DNA from: Bacteroidia bacterium
Lineage (GTDB): Bacteria > Bacteroidota > Bacteroidia > UKL13-3
Assembly (NCBI GenBank): GCA_014376805.1
Contig: JACMQU010000112.1
Coordinates: 1-54,932 of the forward strand
Direction of reading: 5' to 3'
DNA: 54,932 nt
Below are positions 1 through 9,188 of the stretch, in pieces. The notes beneath the pieces were generated by a model. The model had not been told where the DNA came from, did not search any database, and saw only the letters and a program-made list of their open reading frames with translations. The stretch's first letter is position 1; every line of letters begins with the position of its first letter. Both the position numbers and the translations under genes were made by a program.

Positions 1-41
1 AATCGAGTAACGCAGGGGAATTTCACCCCTACGTTCTCACG

Positions 42-75
42 GAACCGTGCTTGAAACTCTCGCTTCACACGGCTC
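42..75 (-). ncRNA. Group II intron domain V
   Basis: The minus strand starts GAGCCGTGTGAAGCGAGAGT and ends GCACGGTTC. This is the classic 34-nt hairpin with paired GAGCCGTG and CACGGTTC arms, a bulge and a GAGA-type tetraloop. It is the catalytic metal-binding domain of group II introns. The maturase stop lies 21 nt upstream, which is the normal order. Bases 2-36 form a second C/G-rich hairpin (paired GGGG and CCCC) in the place of domain VI. Confidence 0.92.
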
Positions 76-96
76 TTCAGAATCTTGAATGCAACT

Positions 97-1329
97 TTAC
101 ATAATAGCAAACCAACTCGTTTGTTGCCAATGGGCAAACAGGTAAGGCATTTCTTTCCACTTTTGTTTTAACCAACTAATAGCCTCCAACTTGAATTTGC
201 GGTAATTCCACTTGCACCATTTTACCAATCTTTGGTTAATATGTACATACAGTTTATTCAATGCTTGTTTACCAAAGGCTCCATAGTAGTTTATCCATCC
301 TCTCAGGATTGGATTTAACTCCTTGGCAAGGGCTTGTATGTTCTGCTTACGTTTGTGCAAGTTGTGATACTTTAATATCTGTATCATCTTTTGCATTGCT
401 TTGGGACTTACCCTTGCATCATAAAGCAGTTTATCTCCCTTCTCTTTGGTTTTGAACCAATGTGGCTGAAACCTGTATCCTAAAAAGTCAAATACTTCTA
501 CACTTTCTCCCTCTTTCCGCTTTTCTTTCTGCTTTTCGGTGCAAACTATTTTTGTTTTCTCCGGATGTAACTCCAAGCCACATTCATTGAATCTCTGCTC
601 CAGTGAGCGCAATACAAATGCTGACTGTGCATAACTGCTGCAATGAATAATGATGTCATCGGCGTACCGCTCAAAGTTGAATTTACTCTTCACTGTTTTG
701 CCGATCCATGCATCAAACACCACATGCAGGTAAAGGTTGGATAATAGCGGACTTACCACTCCTCCCTGTGGTACGCCTTTAAGCGTAGGCTGTAACGTTC
801 CATCTTCCATTTGTACCGGTGATTGCAAGATGCGCTCGATATACAGCCACATCCATTTGATGGGACAGTAATGTTTTACTGCCTGCATCAATTTGTCGTG
901 TGGAATGTTATCAAAATAGCCCTTGATATCAAGGTCTATAACCCAACTGTAATAGTTGGTACGATACCTGCACTCACCTATGGCCTGATGTGCATTTTTA
1001 CCCGCTTGATAGGCGTAGCTGTTCACATGAAATCTCGGCTCAACATAAGGTGCTAATATGCTTCGTAGCACCTCCTGTGCAATCCGGTCTGTGAGGGTGG
1101 GGATTCCCAACCCTCTTGTACCGCCATTGCTCTTGGGGATACTTACCCTGCGCACTGCCTGTGGAAAATAACTACCCGAAGATAGTCTGTTCCATAAGGT
1201 ATACAGGTTTTGTTTCAACCGCTTGTCAAACTTTTGCCAGTTTACTCCATCAACGCCATACGTACCTTGGTTGGCTTTTACTTTCTTGTAAGCCTCCCAT
1301 ACTTGTTGTTTACTTATTTCTAAGCGCAT
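97..1329 (-). CDS. ltrA: Group II intron reverse transcriptase/maturase
   Basis: Intron-encoded protein that helps the intron fold and splice and copies it into DNA at new sites. From the ATG at 1329 it has 410 residues. The N-terminus has the usual family start (EISKQQVWEAYKKVKANQG, then GVDG). The reverse transcriptase palm follows, with the catalytic YADD at about residues 222-225 and the preceding PQGGVVSPLLSN motif. A GIIM maturase domain follows, with LNPILRGWINYYGAFG at about 330-345. The C-terminus ends without a recognisable HNH endonuclease (no paired Cys motifs). The frame stays open upstream to 1551, but those residues do not resemble the family and overlap the intron RNA core, so I chose 1329. 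Reading frame and catalytic residues look intact. Confidence 0.93.
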   Translation of the reverse strand: MRLEISKQQVWEAYKKVKANQGTYGVDGVNWQKFDKRLKQNLYTLWNRLSSGSYFPQAVRRVSIPKSNGGTRGLGIPTLTDRIAQEVLRSILAPYVEPRFHVNSYAYQAGKNAHQAIGECRYRTNYYSWVIDLDIKGYFDNIPHDKLMQAVKHYCPIKWMWLYIERILQSPVQMEDGTLQPTLKGVPQGGVVSPLLSNLYLHVVFDAWIGKTVKSKFNFERYADDIIIHCSSYAQSAFVLRSLEQRFNECGLELHPEKTKIVCTEKQKEKRKEGESVEVFDFLGYRFQPHWFKTKEKGDKLLYDARVSPKAMQKMIQILKYHNLHKRKQNIQALAKELNPILRGWINYYGAFGKQALNKLYVHINQRLVKWCKWNYRKFKLEAISWLKQKWKEMPYLFAHWQQTSWFAIM

Positions 1330-1876
1330 CGTTTTGTTTTGGTGGTATCCTCTCCCGGCTTTCACCAGGATTGTACCTGTTAAAACATGAAACAAATTCT
1401 GTGCATCCCTTCGCTCCTCTTTGCTTTCGCAAAGCATCATCACTACTATGAATGCATCTGACTTCCTCCCTGCACATTGGTAATAGACTTGGTGGTAGTA
1501 CCACCTTGAGCTTTCCCTTTTGCATTGCAGCGAGGATCTCTCCTGTTGCAACTAAAAGCCTGTACAAAGTTCCCGCCCTCTTTACTCCGGTATCCGCAAG
1601 GCCCACATCGGTTTACAGCCGCCTTGCTTATCCCACTTCGCGTGTAATCAGTGGTTTTGGATACGTATCATTATTATCGAAGCTTCAACCAAGGGTTCAA
1701 CCGTTTTCGGCTCCTTTGTACTTACCTGCTATGTTCTTTTCCAACAAAGCTTTTCCCGTAACGCTTAACACCAGAAAATTACTCTTCCAGCATCTTACGG
1801 TGGTTTGCATTCGTTGACCGTCAACGCATGCGGTAGGCCTACTACCATCTTTTAGTTACTTTCTCAGGACACACAC

Positions 1877-2617
1877 AGCAGCTATGGACAAGCAATCGTT
1901 ATAACCATCGCCATTGGGGCTAAATACATTTGGTAATGGCTTAATTTCATCGTCTTTCATTACCGATAAAAATAAACTGTCGGTGGCATTGCACCCAAAC
2001 GAATCATTGGCTGTAACGTAATACATAGTTTGCTTAACCGGGTTGGCCACAGGATTGGCTATAGTATTAATGGAAAGGCCCTCTGCCGGCAGCCATAAAT
2101 AATTGTTGCCACCGGTAACATTTAAATAAGCAAGCGGACTATCGCAGGTAATATTGTTTGATTTTGTAACAATTAATTGAAGTGTCTGGATAGTAAGCAC
2201 TATTGTGATGAGGCTATCACAACCTATAGTGTTGCTTATGGTATCGGTATATGTACCGCCGGTATAATACTTATATTTTCCACTGGGCGATGTAAAAGTA
2301 TCACATACAGTTTTATTGCTATTGCTTTGTGATGATAAGCGTTTGTAATGAATATAAAGAATGCTATCACAACGTTGATTTGATATGAGGGTATCTGAAT
2401 AAAAACCACTTATGTTATAAATGTGTTTACCGCTTGGACTTGTTATTGCATTGCAGCTTTCTAAACTAAGGGTATCGCTTGTTTTTGTTTTTGTAAAGTT
2501 TATGGTGATGATGCTATCGCAATGATTGCTGTTTTCTAAAGTGTCATAATAAATGCCGGTGGAATTAAAGTAATAACGCCCGCCTGGAGCTTTATAAACA
2601 CCGCAAAAAGTAGTTCG
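1877..2617 (-). pseudogene. C-terminal part of the broken T9SS type B client (out of frame, cut by the intron)
   Basis: This continues the protein encoded at 2536-4815 in another frame. Reading minus from about 2617 gives three more copies of the approximately 50-residue repeat (for example SPSGKYKYYTGGTYTDTISN and GCDS). An Ig-like segment follows (SPLAYLNVTGGNNYLWLPAEG), then the start of a gliding-motility/T9SS type B sorting domain (PLPNVFSPNGDGYNDCLSIAAV). That domain should run about 60 residues further, but the reading frame enters the group II intron at 1876. The rest of the domain must lie beyond the window's left edge. If the intron splices, the sorting domain would be restored in the mRNA, leaving only the frameshift near 2615 as a lesion. 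Confidence 0.85.
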
Positions 2618-4815
2618 ATGGTATGATAGGTTTGCAATATCTTTAAGCGGAGGGTAATGATGCTGTCTCCATTTTGTTTGTTGGATATTGTATCTAAATA
2701 ATTGCCGGTAACAGTATAAGTATATTTACCACTTGGAGATAACAGGCTTTTACAAACAGTGGTATCAATGGTACTTTTTGATTGCAATACGGTAAGGCGG
2801 ATGATAAGGATACTATAACAACCACGGGCTGTTATAAGTGTATCTTTGTAGGTGCCTGTGCTGTCCCATACATGCTTACCGCCGGGCGATAGCATTTTTA
2901 TTTTTACGGTTGAATCAAGCGTGCTTGTTCTTTGTAAAACAGTAAGATTTACTGTAATGATGCTATCGCAATTTTTTGAGTTGGATATTGTATCGCGATA
3001 GGTGCCCGAAACAATCCATACATATTTACCGCTGTATGAACGCATGCTTTTACATACGCCACTATCAAGCCTGCTGTTGCTTTGCAATCTTTTAAAATTA
3101 ACCCAAAGAATGCTGTCGCAACCCAAGCTGTTGGGTATGGTATCAAAATAATAACCACTGCTGTCCCAAACATATTTGCCACTTGGCGAGCTTAGCTGTT
3201 TGCATGCTGATAGATTGATGGGAATGTAAGGATCGAGTGCTAATACAAAGCCATCATAAAGGGATGTCCCAAATGCGTTACTCTCAACTAAAGCATGTAA
3301 TTTTTTACAGGGTAAACTAATACTATCTGCAAACCATCCTGAAATATAGGAACGGCCTTTTGGGTCGGTTATTGAACCAATATTATAATACCCAAATTGT
3401 ATGTTATTGCCTGTTTGATTTTGGTTGGCAAAAACAGGTTGCGCTGAAAAAATATTGCCCAAACTATCTAAATAGACTACAAATGAAAAGGATTTATTTA
3501 CAAGGTTTACCGGTGTAAATTTTTGCAATTTTAAATCATTACCATTAGTAGACCCGGCTAAAATGTATTGTTTTGTAACATAATTATAATTAGTGGTGTT
3601 GATAGTTGTATTAACATATAAATCTTGCCAATTTAAATTTCCGTTTGTATTAATTTTACAAAGATAACTGCCATAACTACTGCTAAAGAAGGGATCAAGT
3701 AAAAATTCATAATACCATGGAGCGATATCCAGGAGTAACATCAATTCCTGCTTAGTGGTATCAATATTCATGCTGGGCGTAGGAGTATAATTCAAAAGAA
3801 TTTTTTTCGCTATTGGTATTGCCCAAAGGATACTATCATTCTCATTTAACTTAAATAATAAAGTTGTGTGGCCAAACTTTAAAGGCACCGGGTTAGCGCA
3901 TTTTATTGTATCGGCCCTGGTTGTACTAATATTTAATATAATAAAACTATTTTTCCCATCTGTAACCATTTCTACAACTGGTACGTAAGGATTAAGCTGA
4001 TTATATGAAGAGTCTGCATGATTAAAAGTAAGGCGATTTTTTAAAGGCTCTGTTACTGTAAGTAAATTACCATTATCACCAAATTTAAATATAACATATT
4101 TGGTACTAACAAAAAACATGGTTTTATAGCCAGTATCATTGGTTACACTTAAGGTATCAGGAACAGATGAGTTATTGTCTCTAATATTGGGGAAACAAAC
4201 CCTAATTTCATTGTCATTGTTTATGAGCAGTTTCCCAAAATTTCCCGAAATCGAATTTGCAGGCAGAGTTTCTCTTGTTATAGTGTTTAACCAAATAATT
4301 TGGCCGGTGGGGTTAAGTTTGCAAGCTATTGCTGCCAAATAGCCATTAAGATCCGTAATCTTTTTATTGTAAAGTGGCTTTATGGCCTTATTCAATGTTC
4401 CCTTTGCATCATAAATACTCAGTGAATCATATTGTGAAAAAGTGTAACATAAAATCGCTTCGTTAAATGAATTAAATTTGATGTCAAAAGACCATCCAAA
4501 GAAATCGACAGTTCCGGTTGTATAAAAGCATAAATGATATAAATACCTCCCGAAAGCGTCATACTTTATAATAGCTTTAGCAAAAGGATACCCTGGGGTC
4601 GGATTTTTTAAAATAGTTATTGGGATGCCGGCACTGTCAATTATAAAATTTGATCTGTAGTAAATAGCCTGGTAACGATTGCCACTCCTGTCAATAAAAC
4701 TTTTTATAGCCCGCTGATCCCCGCTTGCGCCATATACCCAGCCCGTTTTTATAATCTGCGCGTTTAGTTGGCAAATACTGATAAATACAAATAATAATAG
4801 AATTAGTTTTTTCAT
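2536..4815 (-). CDS. Secreted repeat protein, N-terminal part of a T9SS type B client (frameshifted)
   Basis: Large secreted or surface protein. The start MKKLILLLFVFISICQLNAQ is a clear signal peptide; an in-frame ATG four codons upstream (4827) is less likely. Residues of about 20-530 form a WD/SBBP-like beta-rich region of unknown function. From about residue 530 comes a tandem repeat of about 50 residues with the pattern SPSGKYVW..SG.Y.DTI.N..GCDSI..VNLTVLQ, four copies in this frame and three more in the downstream frame. The frame leaves the repeat near 2615: the last 30 or so residues here are out of frame. Adding one base in minus-strand ATCGAACTACT restores the repeat motif (TI-D/E-TTFC). 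This is either a real frameshift or a sequencing error. No enzymatic motif is recognised. Confidence 0.8.
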   Translation of the reverse strand: MKKLILLLFVFISICQLNAQIIKTGWVYGASGDQRAIKSFIDRSGNRYQAIYYRSNFIIDSAGIPITILKNPTPGYPFAKAIIKYDAFGRYLYHLCFYTTGTVDFFGWSFDIKFNSFNEAILCYTFSQYDSLSIYDAKGTLNKAIKPLYNKKITDLNGYLAAIACKLNPTGQIIWLNTITRETLPANSISGNFGKLLINNDNEIRVCFPNIRDNNSSVPDTLSVTNDTGYKTMFFVSTKYVIFKFGDNGNLLTVTEPLKNRLTFNHADSSYNQLNPYVPVVEMVTDGKNSFIILNISTTRADTIKCANPVPLKFGHTTLLFKLNENDSILWAIPIAKKILLNYTPTPSMNIDTTKQELMLLLDIAPWYYEFLLDPFFSSSYGSYLCKINTNGNLNWQDLYVNTTINTTNYNYVTKQYILAGSTNGNDLKLQKFTPVNLVNKSFSFVVYLDSLGNIFSAQPVFANQNQTGNNIQFGYYNIGSITDPKGRSYISGWFADSISLPCKKLHALVESNAFGTSLYDGFVLALDPYIPINLSACKQLSSPSGKYVWDSSGYYFDTIPNSLGCDSILWVNFKRLQSNSRLDSGVCKSMRSYSGKYVWIVSGTYRDTISNSKNCDSIITVNLTVLQRTSTLDSTVKIKMLSPGGKHVWDSTGTYKDTLITARGCYSILIIRLTVLQSKSTIDTTVCKSLLSPSGKYTYTVTGNYLDTISNKQNGDSIITLRLKILQTYHTIELLFAVFIKLQAGVITLIPPAFIMTL

Positions 4816-4835
4816 TTCTTCAGGCAAAACAAATA

Positions 4836-4876: not shown

Positions 4877-6055
4877 TTATTGTTTAATTACTTTTATTGA
4901 TTTAACAATATTATTTGGCAAATAAACCTGAACATAGTAACTACCTACTTTAAGTTCGCTGGTGTTTAATTCACCATTATCTAAGCTTGTAGTGCTTAAT
5001 ACTTTTCTTCCACTTATATCATACATAACAACTTTTAAAATTTGTTCTTTGCTTGTAAAGTGGAGTAAATTATTAAAAGGTATAGGATAAGCGCTCAATT
5101 CTATATAAACATCTTTTGAAATTTTATCTGTTTTAACGGAAGCAATTAGGCCATCTGGCGGAGGAGGAGCAAGTATATGCGGGCAAATTAATTCACAATT
5201 TGTTTGGCTCACAAAGCTACCGGTTACAGTATTGTAAAGCCCGGTAGCAGGATCGTAAATTTTTGCCTGCAGTTTTTTGGGATAAATATTATAATCCGGA
5301 AAGGGCTGAATTTCACATAAGCCTCCATCACCTGCTGCTGATACAGGCTTCCAACGGCTCGTTGTTTCCCCATTCGCTAAGGTAGTTGTTACCCAGTTAT
5401 AAGTAACTTTGCAACATACATCGTTGCATGGTATATTTTGCGACACTTTAGAACCTGCCGATACATAGAAAGTATCAATATGGCCAAGGTCATTGGGAAC
5501 TCCGGCAAAGAAGGCCCCATTTGGAAAACTTAAGGTTACCAATGAGTAGCAAGCTCCTTTAAAAAACACATCATAACCACCGGCTTGAGTTGTGATACCT
5601 TCTTTATTTAAAAGTTTTGTTATAGCATCTGCTACGGCCGCTTTCATAGAGTTGGTTGTAGGTGGGGCTGGATATATACAACCTAAAGTAGCTGGAGGAG
5701 GAATTATAGTTGGATTTGAAATAACACATCCAGGCAGAAATTGGTTACCCCAAACCGTTTCCCAAAAATCCCTGTTGTCAACAAAAACATAATCGTCAAT
5801 TATAACAGATTTTATACCACCAGGGCAAGTTTTAATTCTGTAATTGATAATAACAAAAACAAAGGGTGCATCGGTTATTATTTCATTACCGTTAATGGGT
5901 GGAGTATAATTAACTGTATTCGTAAATGTACAAAGCGGGATAGTCATTGTCTTCAACGAATCTTCCGTACAATCATCTTTACAAAGATTAGGTTGCGCAA
6001 GCGCACAACTTATTAAAACGGCAAACATGCCAAGGGATAAAAGTAGTTTTTTCAT
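4877..6055 (-). CDS. Secreted protein with T9SS type A sorting domain
   Basis: A 392-residue exported protein of unknown function. Residues 1-20 (MKKLLLSLGMFAVLISCALA) are a signal peptide with cleavage before QPN. The middle is rich in Cys (for example CKDDC and CNDVCC), suggesting disulfides outside the cytoplasm, and in Pro. Residues of about 320-392 are a typical type A C-terminal sorting domain: AYPIPFNNLLHF, then VVMYDISGRKV, then LKVGSYYVQVYL and a basic end. T9SS removes this domain and releases the protein or anchors it to A-LPS. The gene is co-oriented with the disrupted type B client downstream, with a hairpin between them, so the two may be separately controlled. The catalytic role, if any, is unknown. 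Confidence 0.88.
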   Translation of the reverse strand: MKKLLLSLGMFAVLISCALAQPNLCKDDCTEDSLKTMTIPLCTFTNTVNYTPPINGNEIITDAPFVFVIINYRIKTCPGGIKSVIIDDYVFVDNRDFWETVWGNQFLPGCVISNPTIIPPPATLGCIYPAPPTTNSMKAAVADAITKLLNKEGITTQAGGYDVFFKGACYSLVTLSFPNGAFFAGVPNDLGHIDTFYVSAGSKVSQNIPCNDVCCKVTYNWVTTTLANGETTSRWKPVSAAGDGGLCEIQPFPDYNIYPKKLQAKIYDPATGLYNTVTGSFVSQTNCELICPHILAPPPPDGLIASVKTDKISKDVYIELSAYPIPFNNLLHFTSKEQILKVVMYDISGRKVLSTTSLDNGELNTSELKVGSYYVQVYLPNNIVKSIKVIKQ

Positions 6056-7124: not shown

Positions 7125-7703
7125 TCCTTGTAAGGACAATACTAACTGATAAAACCCGGCTACTTCTTCAAATAAGTCTACAGTTTTTTTAATGGGTTGA
7201 ACCTGAATAAATTTTAGATAAGGCAATGTTTTTAACGCATTCTTTTCTTCCTTTGTCATAGTTTTCAGCAATTGAAAAGATTGGTGGTTAATATCATTAT
7301 TCCAGATCTGATCGTTAATTAAGACATAAAGATCATTAATTTCTGTAGATTGTTCTATCAGTTCATCTGCTTGAAAATACTTTTGGTTCAGAAAGAACTG
7401 TAAACCTACATATTTGCCCCACCAAAAAACTACCCTGCAAAGCATTTTAAAGCCTTCTCCCGAAATCTTAGGATAATCCAGTACAATGTATGGCAGATCC
7501 TGGTAATTTTCGCCTCTGCTAATCTTATAACCATTTACATTTCCTAACGCTTCAGCTAAATTAATTTGCTGTAATTGTTCTCCCAATATTACCAACTGAG
7601 CCTGTACTTTTTCCATGGCACTTTTTTTGAGTAAAGGATAATAAGTTCCTGAAATTAATTCAAGTTCTTCATTTGTCAGTTTATTTGTCCATTTTTGCCC
7701 CAT
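7101..7703 (-). CDS. Conserved hypothetical protein, about 200 residues
   Basis: I do not recognise a named domain. The protein is cytoplasmic (no signal peptide or membrane segment), mixed alpha/beta, and rich in Gln, Leu and aromatic residues. A central stretch (MLCRVVFWWGKYVGLQFFLN) is strongly hydrophobic with aromatics. I chose the ATG at 7703; a TTG three codons upstream is also in frame. It is convergent and overlapping with the START-like gene and divergent from the LptF/G permease with only a 21-bp gap. A TATGTTTG box on its strand lies a few bases before the ATG. The function is unknown. Confidence 0.75.
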   Translation of the reverse strand: MGQKWTNKLTNEELELISGTYYPLLKKSAMEKVQAQLVILGEQLQQINLAEALGNVNGYKISRGENYQDLPYIVLDYPKISGEGFKMLCRVVFWWGKYVGLQFFLNQKYFQADELIEQSTEINDLYVLINDQIWNNDINHQSFQLLKTMTKEEKNALKTLPYLKFIQVQPIKKTVDLFEEVAGFYQLVLSLQGLTAQQGS

Positions 7704-7709
7704 ATCCCT

Positions 7710-7742
7710 CAAACATAATCAAGCGTGAAGAAGTTTTATCAA
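7710..7742 (-). promoter_or_regulatory. Probable promoter, start-proximal TAnnTTTG box
   Basis: The minus strand reads TATGTTTG at 7717-7710, an exact TAnnTTTG, with TTG at 7742-7740, 22 bp upstream. The expected transcription start (about 7704) coincides with the ATG at 7703, so the transcript would be leaderless or nearly so. The element overlaps the divergent GTG start at 7725. Confidence 0.5.
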
Positions 7743-9188
7743 CTTATTTTAAGAAGTTATCTGGCAGCCTTTATTCCCACCTTCTTAATTGTTATGCTAA
7801 TTTTACTGATGCAGGTTATCTGGCTCTATGTGGATGAGTTAATAGGTAAAGGACTGGAGTGGCAAGTAATAGCAGAACTTATGTTTTATTTTTCGGCAAG
7901 CCTGATCCCACAGGCATTGCCACTATCGGTTTTACTCTCTTCCATTATGACCTTTGGAAATCTGGGTGAAAGTTATGAACTTGTTGCAGCTAAAGCATCG
8001 GGCATTTCCATTTGGAGAATGTTTAAACCTATGGTTGGGCTAATGGTTTTCATTGCCATTTTTGGATTCTTTGTTTCAAATATTCTCATCCCTCAAGCCA
8101 ATCTTAAAAGAGGCTCTCTGCTTTATGATGTGAGGCAGCAAAAACCGGCACTGGCTATAAAAGCGGGAGTCTTCAGCCAGGATATTCCGGGAATTACTTT
8201 AAGGGTAGGGAAAAAAAATAGTAAAACACAGGAACTTCAGGAGATCCTTATTTATGACTTGCGCGAAAGTCAGTTGCATCCGGTAATTATCTTTGCCAAA
8301 CGGGGTAACATGTCCATGAGTGAAGATGGACGGTATCTGTTTCTTACCCTCTTTGAAGGTGCGCGCTATGAGGAAATGGAAAAACAAAAAGGTTATTACA
8401 ATTCTCAACCACATACTACTACTGCATTTTCTGAAGAAAGGATTGCCTTTGACATGAACAGTTTTAAATTTAGCAGAACGGATGAGAACCTGTTTAAACA
8501 TCACTGGGAAATGTTAAACGTATTGGAGCTGCAACATGCCAGTGATTCTCTTGATAAGGTGGCAAAAATTAAGTATAAAGAACTGGCAGATTTTATTAAA
8601 CCCTATTATTATTTTTCGAGGGCCGCTGCAGATAGTACCGGCAAAATTAATGCCCTCCCGCCTATGCAGGTGCAATCAGTTAATCCTGATATTATCAGTC
8701 ATTTTAAAGAACTCCGGGGAGATGGTGTTTATACTGCAGCAATTAACAATACACGCAGTGTTAAAAATATTGTAGAATACAGTATTAATGAATATAATGA
8801 ACTCACTAAAATGAGAGCTCGTCACCGCATTGAATGGCACCGCAAATTTATTTTATCAGTAGCCTGTGTAATCATGTTTTTTATTGGTGCACCGCTCGGC
8901 TCTATCATCCGTAAGGGAGGGTTTGGACTTCCCATTGTAGTTTCGGTTATTCTTTATGTATGTTATCATATCGTCTCTCTTTCGGGTGAAAAATTTGCTA
9001 AAACGCTAGCCTGGAGTCCAGCAGCTGGAATGTGGCTTGGAATAACAGTTTTTGTACCACTTGGCATTTTTTTAAGTTATCAGGCAGCTAATGATTCTAA
9101 AATATTTGATGCTTCGGTGTACATCAATTTAGGCAGAAAACTTAGCAGCGCATTTAAGAAAAAACTAAGTTCCCGATCTCACTTGTAA
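7725..9188 (+). CDS. LptF/LptG family permease (long form)
   Basis: Inner-membrane subunit of the LPS transporter LptB2FG, which extracts LPS and passes it to the periplasmic bridge. Its 487 residues show three N-terminal membrane helices (about 15-130), a long periplasmic beta-jellyroll-like domain (about 140-365, with GVFSQDIPGITLRVGKKN and IFAKRGNMSMSEDGRYLFLTL typical of the family) and three C-terminal helices (about 375-460, including CVIMFFIGAPLGSIIRKGGFG). It starts with GTG at 7725. A second LptF/G-like gene occurs at 22194, so this could be the F partner and that the G partner. That assignment is inference. Confidence 0.9.
   Translation: MKKFYQLILRSYLAAFIPTFLIVMLILLMQVIWLYVDELIGKGLEWQVIAELMFYFSASLIPQALPLSVLLSSIMTFGNLGESYELVAAKASGISIWRMFKPMVGLMVFIAIFGFFVSNILIPQANLKRGSLLYDVRQQKPALAIKAGVFSQDIPGITLRVGKKNSKTQELQEILIYDLRESQLHPVIIFAKRGNMSMSEDGRYLFLTLFEGARYEEMEKQKGYYNSQPHTTTAFSEERIAFDMNSFKFSRTDENLFKHHWEMLNVLELQHASDSLDKVAKIKYKELADFIKPYYYFSRAAADSTGKINALPPMQVQSVNPDIISHFKELRGDGVYTAAINNTRSVKNIVEYSINEYNELTKMRARHRIEWHRKFILSVACVIMFFIGAPLGSIIRKGGFGLPIVVSVILYVCYHIVSLSGEKFAKTLAWSPAAGMWLGITVFVPLGIFLSYQAANDSKIFDASVYINLGRKLSSAFKKKLSSRSHL

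What the first reader, a model, noticed from the sequence alone, without database searches (positions are those of the whole stretch)
2..1876. Group II intron inserted inside a T9SS type B sorting domain
The 5' exon reads PLPNVFSPNGDGYNDCLSIAAV, the hallmark start of the gliding-motility C-terminal domain, and is cut at a GTGTG intron start. Insertion in this domain would block secretion of the protein unless the intron splices. Splicing would restore the domain, so the intron would need to remain splicing-competent if the client is useful.
Basis: partly seen in the sequence, partly recalled or inferred. Interest (0 to 1): 0.75.

Follow-up and report, generated by a model that had tools for sequence, protein, structure and literature searches.

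The report
Mobile intron splitting a secretion signal
A self-splicing mobile element sits inside the part of a bacterial surface-protein gene that encodes the export signal; the site is unusual, but the element is of a well-known kind and the gene it interrupts looks already damaged.

Summary
Observation confirmed. A complete group II intron lies on the minus strand at 1874..2, with Rfam D1-D4 and domain V/VI matches and an intact reverse transcriptase/maturase. Window position 1 is a contig end, but contig C161 of the same bin repeats the last 141 bases exactly and goes on with the missing exon. Joining the exons restores the frame and completes a T9SS type B sorting domain (CHU_C 75.7 bits; halves 17.8 and 44.4). 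An intron-free ortholog aligns across the junction without a gap.

Its functional reading is weaker. The host gene changes frame near 2605-2614, where two orthologs do not, so splicing alone gives no full-length product unless that is an assembly error. The EBS1 hairpin pairs with only 3 exon bases, a chance-level score and the lowest of 11 introns scored. None of 25 domain V tails from other genomes has a sorting-domain motif in the flanks held.

Best reading: an ordinary mobile retroelement insertion at an unusual place; splicing is possible but unproven.

The parts
2..1874 (-). group II intron, 1873 nt, 5' GTGTGTCC ... CTCGAT 3'
   Evidence: Rfam matches at both ends; boundaries from relatives and the in-frame join
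1724..1846 (-). conserved D1-D4 core
   Evidence: RF01999, 78.9 bits
1633..1654 (-). EBS1 hairpin; EBS1 itself at 1645..1639
   Evidence: lines up with the hairpin whose loop pairs with its exon in relatives; with its own exon only 3 base pairs
97..1551 (-). intron-encoded reverse transcriptase/maturase, intact open frame, YADD present
   Evidence: open frame; TIGR04416 399.3 bits, cut-off 300; PF00078, PF08388; YADD
2..77 (-). domains V and VI; bulged branch-site A at window position 8, seventh base from the 3' end
   Evidence: RF00029 58.4 bits; fold
1..1 (-). first base of the 3' exon; contig end. The exon continues on G000:C161 (L004:141 on)
   Evidence: 141-base exact overlap
1875..4827 (-). 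host gene, 5' part: repeat-rich protein with the first quarter of the type B sorting domain next to the intron
   Evidence: tblastn of the G016 and G026 orthologs; CHU_C positions 3-21 of 86
2605..2614 (-). change of reading frame inside the host gene, upstream of the intron
   Evidence: G016 match moves from frame -2 (4815-2605) to frame -1 (2614-1877); a run of five T lies at 2609-2605

Best explanation
A bacterial group II intron retroelement, probably a fairly recent arrival, inserted in the sense orientation into the codons of the type B sorting domain of one T9SS-substrate gene in an uncultured Bacteroidota bacterium. Shown: complete ribozyme ends and an intact maturase; exons that join in frame and match an ortholog without a gap. 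Inferred: the maturase helps the RNA splice out at least some of the time, which makes the insertion tolerable; unspliced message gives a protein without its export signal. The client is probably not under strong selection, since its frame is already broken upstream, its family is patchy in the genus and the genome holds many other sorting-domain genes. The site is best read as an off-target (ectopic) insertion, not a regulated switch.
For: Intron core and maturase. Exact 141-base overlap with C161 and in-frame completion of the domain. Gap-free alignment with the intron-free G016 ortholog, 61% over 88 residues; for the 3' exon, 7 of the 8 host-gene homologs from other genomes compared (61.6-92.0 bits) score above the best other sorting domain of its own genome (52.4 bits); the eighth (G036, 44.3 bits over 39 residues) does not. 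GC of the intron 43.6% against 35.7% of the gene. Frame break. Weak EBS1-IBS1 pairing. 18 other sorting-domain matches in the genome, two of them weak. No match to the 763-aa part in 7 of 19 genus genomes, and an in-frame stop in the G014 homolog. One IEP copy in the bin. Nearest named relatives by the neighbouring kinase gene are Bacteroidota MAGs.
Against: The frame break may be an assembly error; a run of five T lies within it and no reads are held. The RNA ends and maturase look intact, which fits a working intron. The link between C46 and C161 rests on overlap and homology, not on a spanning read, and the gene downstream on C161 is not the one beside the G016 ortholog. The chance-level pairing does not show that splicing fails.
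Confidence: 0.7

Rival explanations
1. The client is functional and the intron splices efficiently; the frame break is an assembly or sequencing error.
For: In-frame, length-conserving join; intact ribozyme ends and maturase; one frame change seen in about 980 codons of 5' exon, with a run of five T inside it. (Raised from 0.20 to 0.22, and the best explanation lowered from 0.72 to 0.70, on noticing that T run.)
Against: EBS1-IBS1 pairing is 3 base pairs, a score reached by 13% of 5000 random 12-mers. The gene family is patchy and broken in another genus member.
Confidence: 0.22
2. The GU repeat at the 5' junction allows shifted splice sites, giving alternative products or a secretion switch, by analogy with C.te.I1.
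For: EBS1 pairs better when the junction is slid into the intron: score 5 at +3 and 6 at +4 to +6, against 3 at 0; +3 and +6 are in frame. C.te.I1 uses a 5' site shifted 8 nt upstream (PMC3919590, abstract and passages).
Against: The slide would place part of the conserved GTGTG start in the exon, and goes the opposite way from C.te.I1. A repeat makes good pairing in several registers likely by itself. Upstream registers at -14 and -13 score 4.8 but are out of frame.
Confidence: 0.04
3. Assembly chimera: C46 and C161 hold two different intron copies in two different sorting-domain genes.
For: The contig breaks one base beyond the intron, as expected if more than one sequence follows the intron end in the sample (inference). 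The downstream gene on C161 differs from that in G016.
Against: The C161 exon fits the same ortholog as the C46 exon, in frame and without a gap, and scores higher against it than against the other sorting domains found in its genome. Only one other domain V copy was found in the bin (C29, 88% identical).
Confidence: 0.04

Closest known systems
Mobile bacterial group II introns with RT/maturase IEP (TIGR04416; Rfam RF01999 + RF00029)
   Same: Domains, IEP, termini and the place of the EBS1 hairpin
   Different: Sits within a protein-coding gene; PMC8919778 (passages) says such introns often nest in intergenic regions or other mobile elements, with some in essential genes. Pairing to its exon is poor. 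IEP matches among the 5000 best plasmid records are all under 60% identity
[quoted passage not shown] abstract and passages)
   Same: Group II intron in a gene for a cell-surface protein, where splicing decides the C-terminal part
   Different: C.te.I1 has no IEP (PMC4424553, passages), four domain 5/6 motifs and shown alternative splicing; here one intron with its own IEP and no RNA data
T9SS type B sorting domain (TIGR04131 / PF13585)
   Same: The joined exons score above both curated cut-offs
   Different: Interrupted in the DNA by the intron

Membership tests
bacterial group II intron retroelement | domain V/VI with bulged A | tested here: met
   RF00029 58.4 bits; fold
bacterial group II intron retroelement | D1-D4 core | tested here: met
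   RF01999 78.9 bits
bacterial group II intron retroelement | RT and maturase domains in the IEP | tested here: met
   TIGR04416 399.3 bits; PF00078, PF08388
bacterial group II intron retroelement | GUGYG start and AY end | tested here: met
   GTGTGTCC ... CGAT
bacterial group II intron retroelement | EBS1-IBS1 pairing with the 5' exon | tested here: inconclusive
   hairpin present; 3 pairs, score 3 against 4.3-7 in 10 other introns, three of them copies of one element
bacterial group II intron retroelement | EBS2-IBS2 pairing | tested here: inconclusive
   no consistent position across the introns scored
bacterial group II intron retroelement | splicing and mobility | not testable with these tools
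   no RNA data
T9SS type B sorting domain | model score over cut-off after joining the exons | tested here: met
   TIGR04131 48 bits (cut-off 35); PF13585 75.7 bits (cut-off 27)
T9SS type B sorting domain | export through the T9SS | not testable with these tools
   no expression data
C.te.I1-like alternatively spliced intron | several domain V/VI motifs downstream | tested here: not met
   one domain V/VI in the window and only that same one in the first 20000 bases of C161
C.te.I1-like alternatively spliced intron | shifted 5' splice site | tested here: inconclusive
   shifted registers possible on paper only

The most novel reading that the evidence does not exclude
Splicing of the intron acts as a gate on T9SS export: unspliced or shifted products stay in the periplasm and spliced product reaches the surface, with the GU repeat giving several junction registers.
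Probability: 0.03. Interest if true: 0.65.

Novelty: new member of a known kind. Interest (0 to 1): 0.25.

Why it matters
It is a clear case of a group II intron inside the codons of a bacterial export signal, with an intron-free ortholog to compare, and it gives a concrete junction to look for in metatranscriptomes. If the spliced message were found it would show that a T9SS substrate depends on a ribozyme for export; if not, it is one more selfish insertion. Four searches paired group II introns with Bacteroidetes surface proteins, T9SS, gliding motility and C-terminal secretion signals (5 of 5, 2 of 2, 10 of 19 and 0 of 0 papers listed). No listed title or abstract start describes such an insertion; I opened passages of one of these papers (PMC5887026), which mentions T9SS genes and a group II intron protein separately. 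The library lacks most subscription journals.

Tried and rejected
Close relatives of the IEP in genome contigs and viral contigs by peptide patterns: none confirmed. EBS2: no consistent site. Preference of this intron family for sorting domains: not seen. Of 28 distinct domain V tails caught by the pattern, two are the two contig ends of the window intron (both with the motif, which serves as a positive check), one is C29 and 25 are from other genomes; none of these 26 has the motif in the flanks held. The pattern missed some loci (for example those of G044), and several contigs end near or inside the intron, so not all flanks could be read. Host protein's 763-aa N-terminal part: no NCBIfam or Pfam match at E 0.1. 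Solved relatives of the IEP (15 distinct chains, best E 1.1e-46, an RT/maturase) did not settle the intron class, which I leave open.

EBS1 scoring used loops chosen by eye; four introns examined (L095, L096, L099, L101) were dropped for want of a clear loop or because of N; L094, L103 and L106 are copies of one element in one genome, so 11 introns stand for 9 loops. The scoring scheme is mine, and choosing loops by eye may favour the relatives.

Full report
What is there. The window is contig C46 (1-54932) of a 183-contig genome bin, 88.5% complete. On the minus strand, 1874..2 is a group II intron: Rfam D1D4-2 at 1846-1724 (78.9 bits) and domain V/VI at 77-2 (58.4 bits). Domain VI folds with a bulged A, the seventh base from the end. 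An open frame of 484 codons (97..1551) holds the reverse transcriptase and maturase domains (TIGR04416 399.3 bits; PF00078 and PF08388) and YADD. Intron GC is 43.6%, the host gene's 35.7%, which fits a later arrival (inference).

The missing exon. Position 1 is a contig end. Searching the bin with the intron gave three places: itself, C161:1-141 at 100%, and a diverged copy on C29 (88% over 78 bases). C161 begins with exactly the last 141 bases of C46. An overlap of 141 is what MEGAHIT leaves at a branch with its largest default k (recalled). After the intron end, C161 continues in frame: AAV|AQFKEVTFSIFNKWGESVF...TLLR and stop. Of nine combinations of three 5' and three 3' boundaries, three keep the frame; the canonical GTGTGTCC / CGAT pair is one of them, and it gives exactly the ortholog's length. 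The joined part scores 75.7 bits against CHU_C and 48 against TIGR04131; the 5' part alone scores 17.8 and 13.6, the 3' part alone 44.4 and 22.7.

Control by orthologs. A same-genus genome (G016) has an intact gene of 1044 codons without the intron, and G026 of the same family one of 1043. The joined product aligns with G016 without a gap, 61% over 88 residues; the 3' exon alone matches at 60% over 67. For the 3' exon, 7 of 8 host-gene homologs from other genomes score 61.6 to 92.0 bits, above the best other sorting domain of its own genome (52.4 bits); the eighth, from G036, scores 44.3 over 39 residues. So C161 most likely carries the continuation of the gene on C46. Neighbour genes agree on one side only: the upstream gene is shared with G016 (by eye), the downstream histidine kinase of C161 is on another contig in G016.

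The client. The G016 match runs in frame -2 over 4815-2605 and in frame -1 over 2614-1877, and the G026 match changes frame likewise: the gene loses its frame upstream of the domain. A run of five T lies at 2609-2605, and no reads are held, so an assembly error cannot be excluded. If the break is real, splicing alone does not yield the exported protein. The family is patchy: 12 of 19 genus genomes, the own one included, match the 763-aa part at E 0.001, some of them only weakly; the G014 homolog has an in-frame stop. The bin has 18 other matches to the sorting domain, two of them weak.

Pairing. In a related intron without an IEP from genome G038 (whose contig length equals that of the UKL13-3 chromosome; no IEP match), the EBS1 loop pairs perfectly with 7 bases of its exon. 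A corresponding hairpin lies at a similar place in others. With the scheme, ten other introns (eight distinct loops) score 4.3 to 7 with their own exon; 104 mismatched loop/exon pairs average 2.16 (sd 0.87, 16 at 3 or more, maximum 5). The window intron scores 3, a value reached by 13% of 5000 random 12-mers. Sliding the junction 4 to 6 bases into the GU repeat raises it to 6; of the slid registers +3 (score 5) and +6 stay in frame. I read the weak pairing as an off-target insertion or later drift; it does not prove that splicing fails.

Spread. Among 147 genomes (relatives, own included), 20 gave a DNA match to the intron, most of the listed matches at domain V/VI; IEP matches at E 1e-60 were in 4 of 147, own included, and at 1e-90 in 12 of 395 genomes of the class, own included. 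In the genus, 5 of 19 genomes, own included, have a domain V/VI match at E 0.001, 4 of them over the cut-off. None of 25 domain V tails from other genomes has a sorting-domain motif in the flanks held. On this sample the site is a one-off.

Prior knowledge. [quoted passage not shown] PMC8919778 (passages) notes that such introns often lie in intergenic regions or mobile elements. PMC9143113 (passages) gives evidence that type B domain proteins are held at the surface by PorP-like proteins. The present case is a new member of a known kind at an unusual site.

Noticed in passing
L005 (G000:C29) 7621-8204, minus strand: A second group II intron of the same genome, domain V/VI 59.1 bits, with no RT match or RT frame in the 507 bases held upstream of domain V; the contig ends there, inside D1 by alignment. 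Probably an ORF-less intron that could borrow the window intron's maturase.
   Followed up: partly
L094, L103, L106 (G367, three copies): An IEP-bearing group II intron that begins directly behind a domain V/VI of another group II intron (41 bits in L103; 39.3, just under the cut-off of 40, in L094 and L106); its EBS1 loop matches the intron end CTCGAT, with one mismatch in the L103 target.
   Followed up: partly
L083 (G038, apparently Bacteroidetes bacterium UKL13-3) 3202-2511, minus strand: Complete group II intron of 692 nt without an IEP, with perfect 7-base EBS1-IBS1 pairing.
   Followed up: partly
window 2200-3300, minus strand: The host protein carries tandem repeats of about 50 residues of the type SPSGKYxWDSTGxYxDTIxNxxGCDSI (by eye); no NCBIfam or Pfam model matched them.
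   Followed up: no
window 4877-6055, minus strand: The gene next upstream encodes a protein that ends in what looks like a T9SS type A sorting domain (by eye) and has look-alikes beside the host-gene orthologs in G016 and G026.
   Followed up: no
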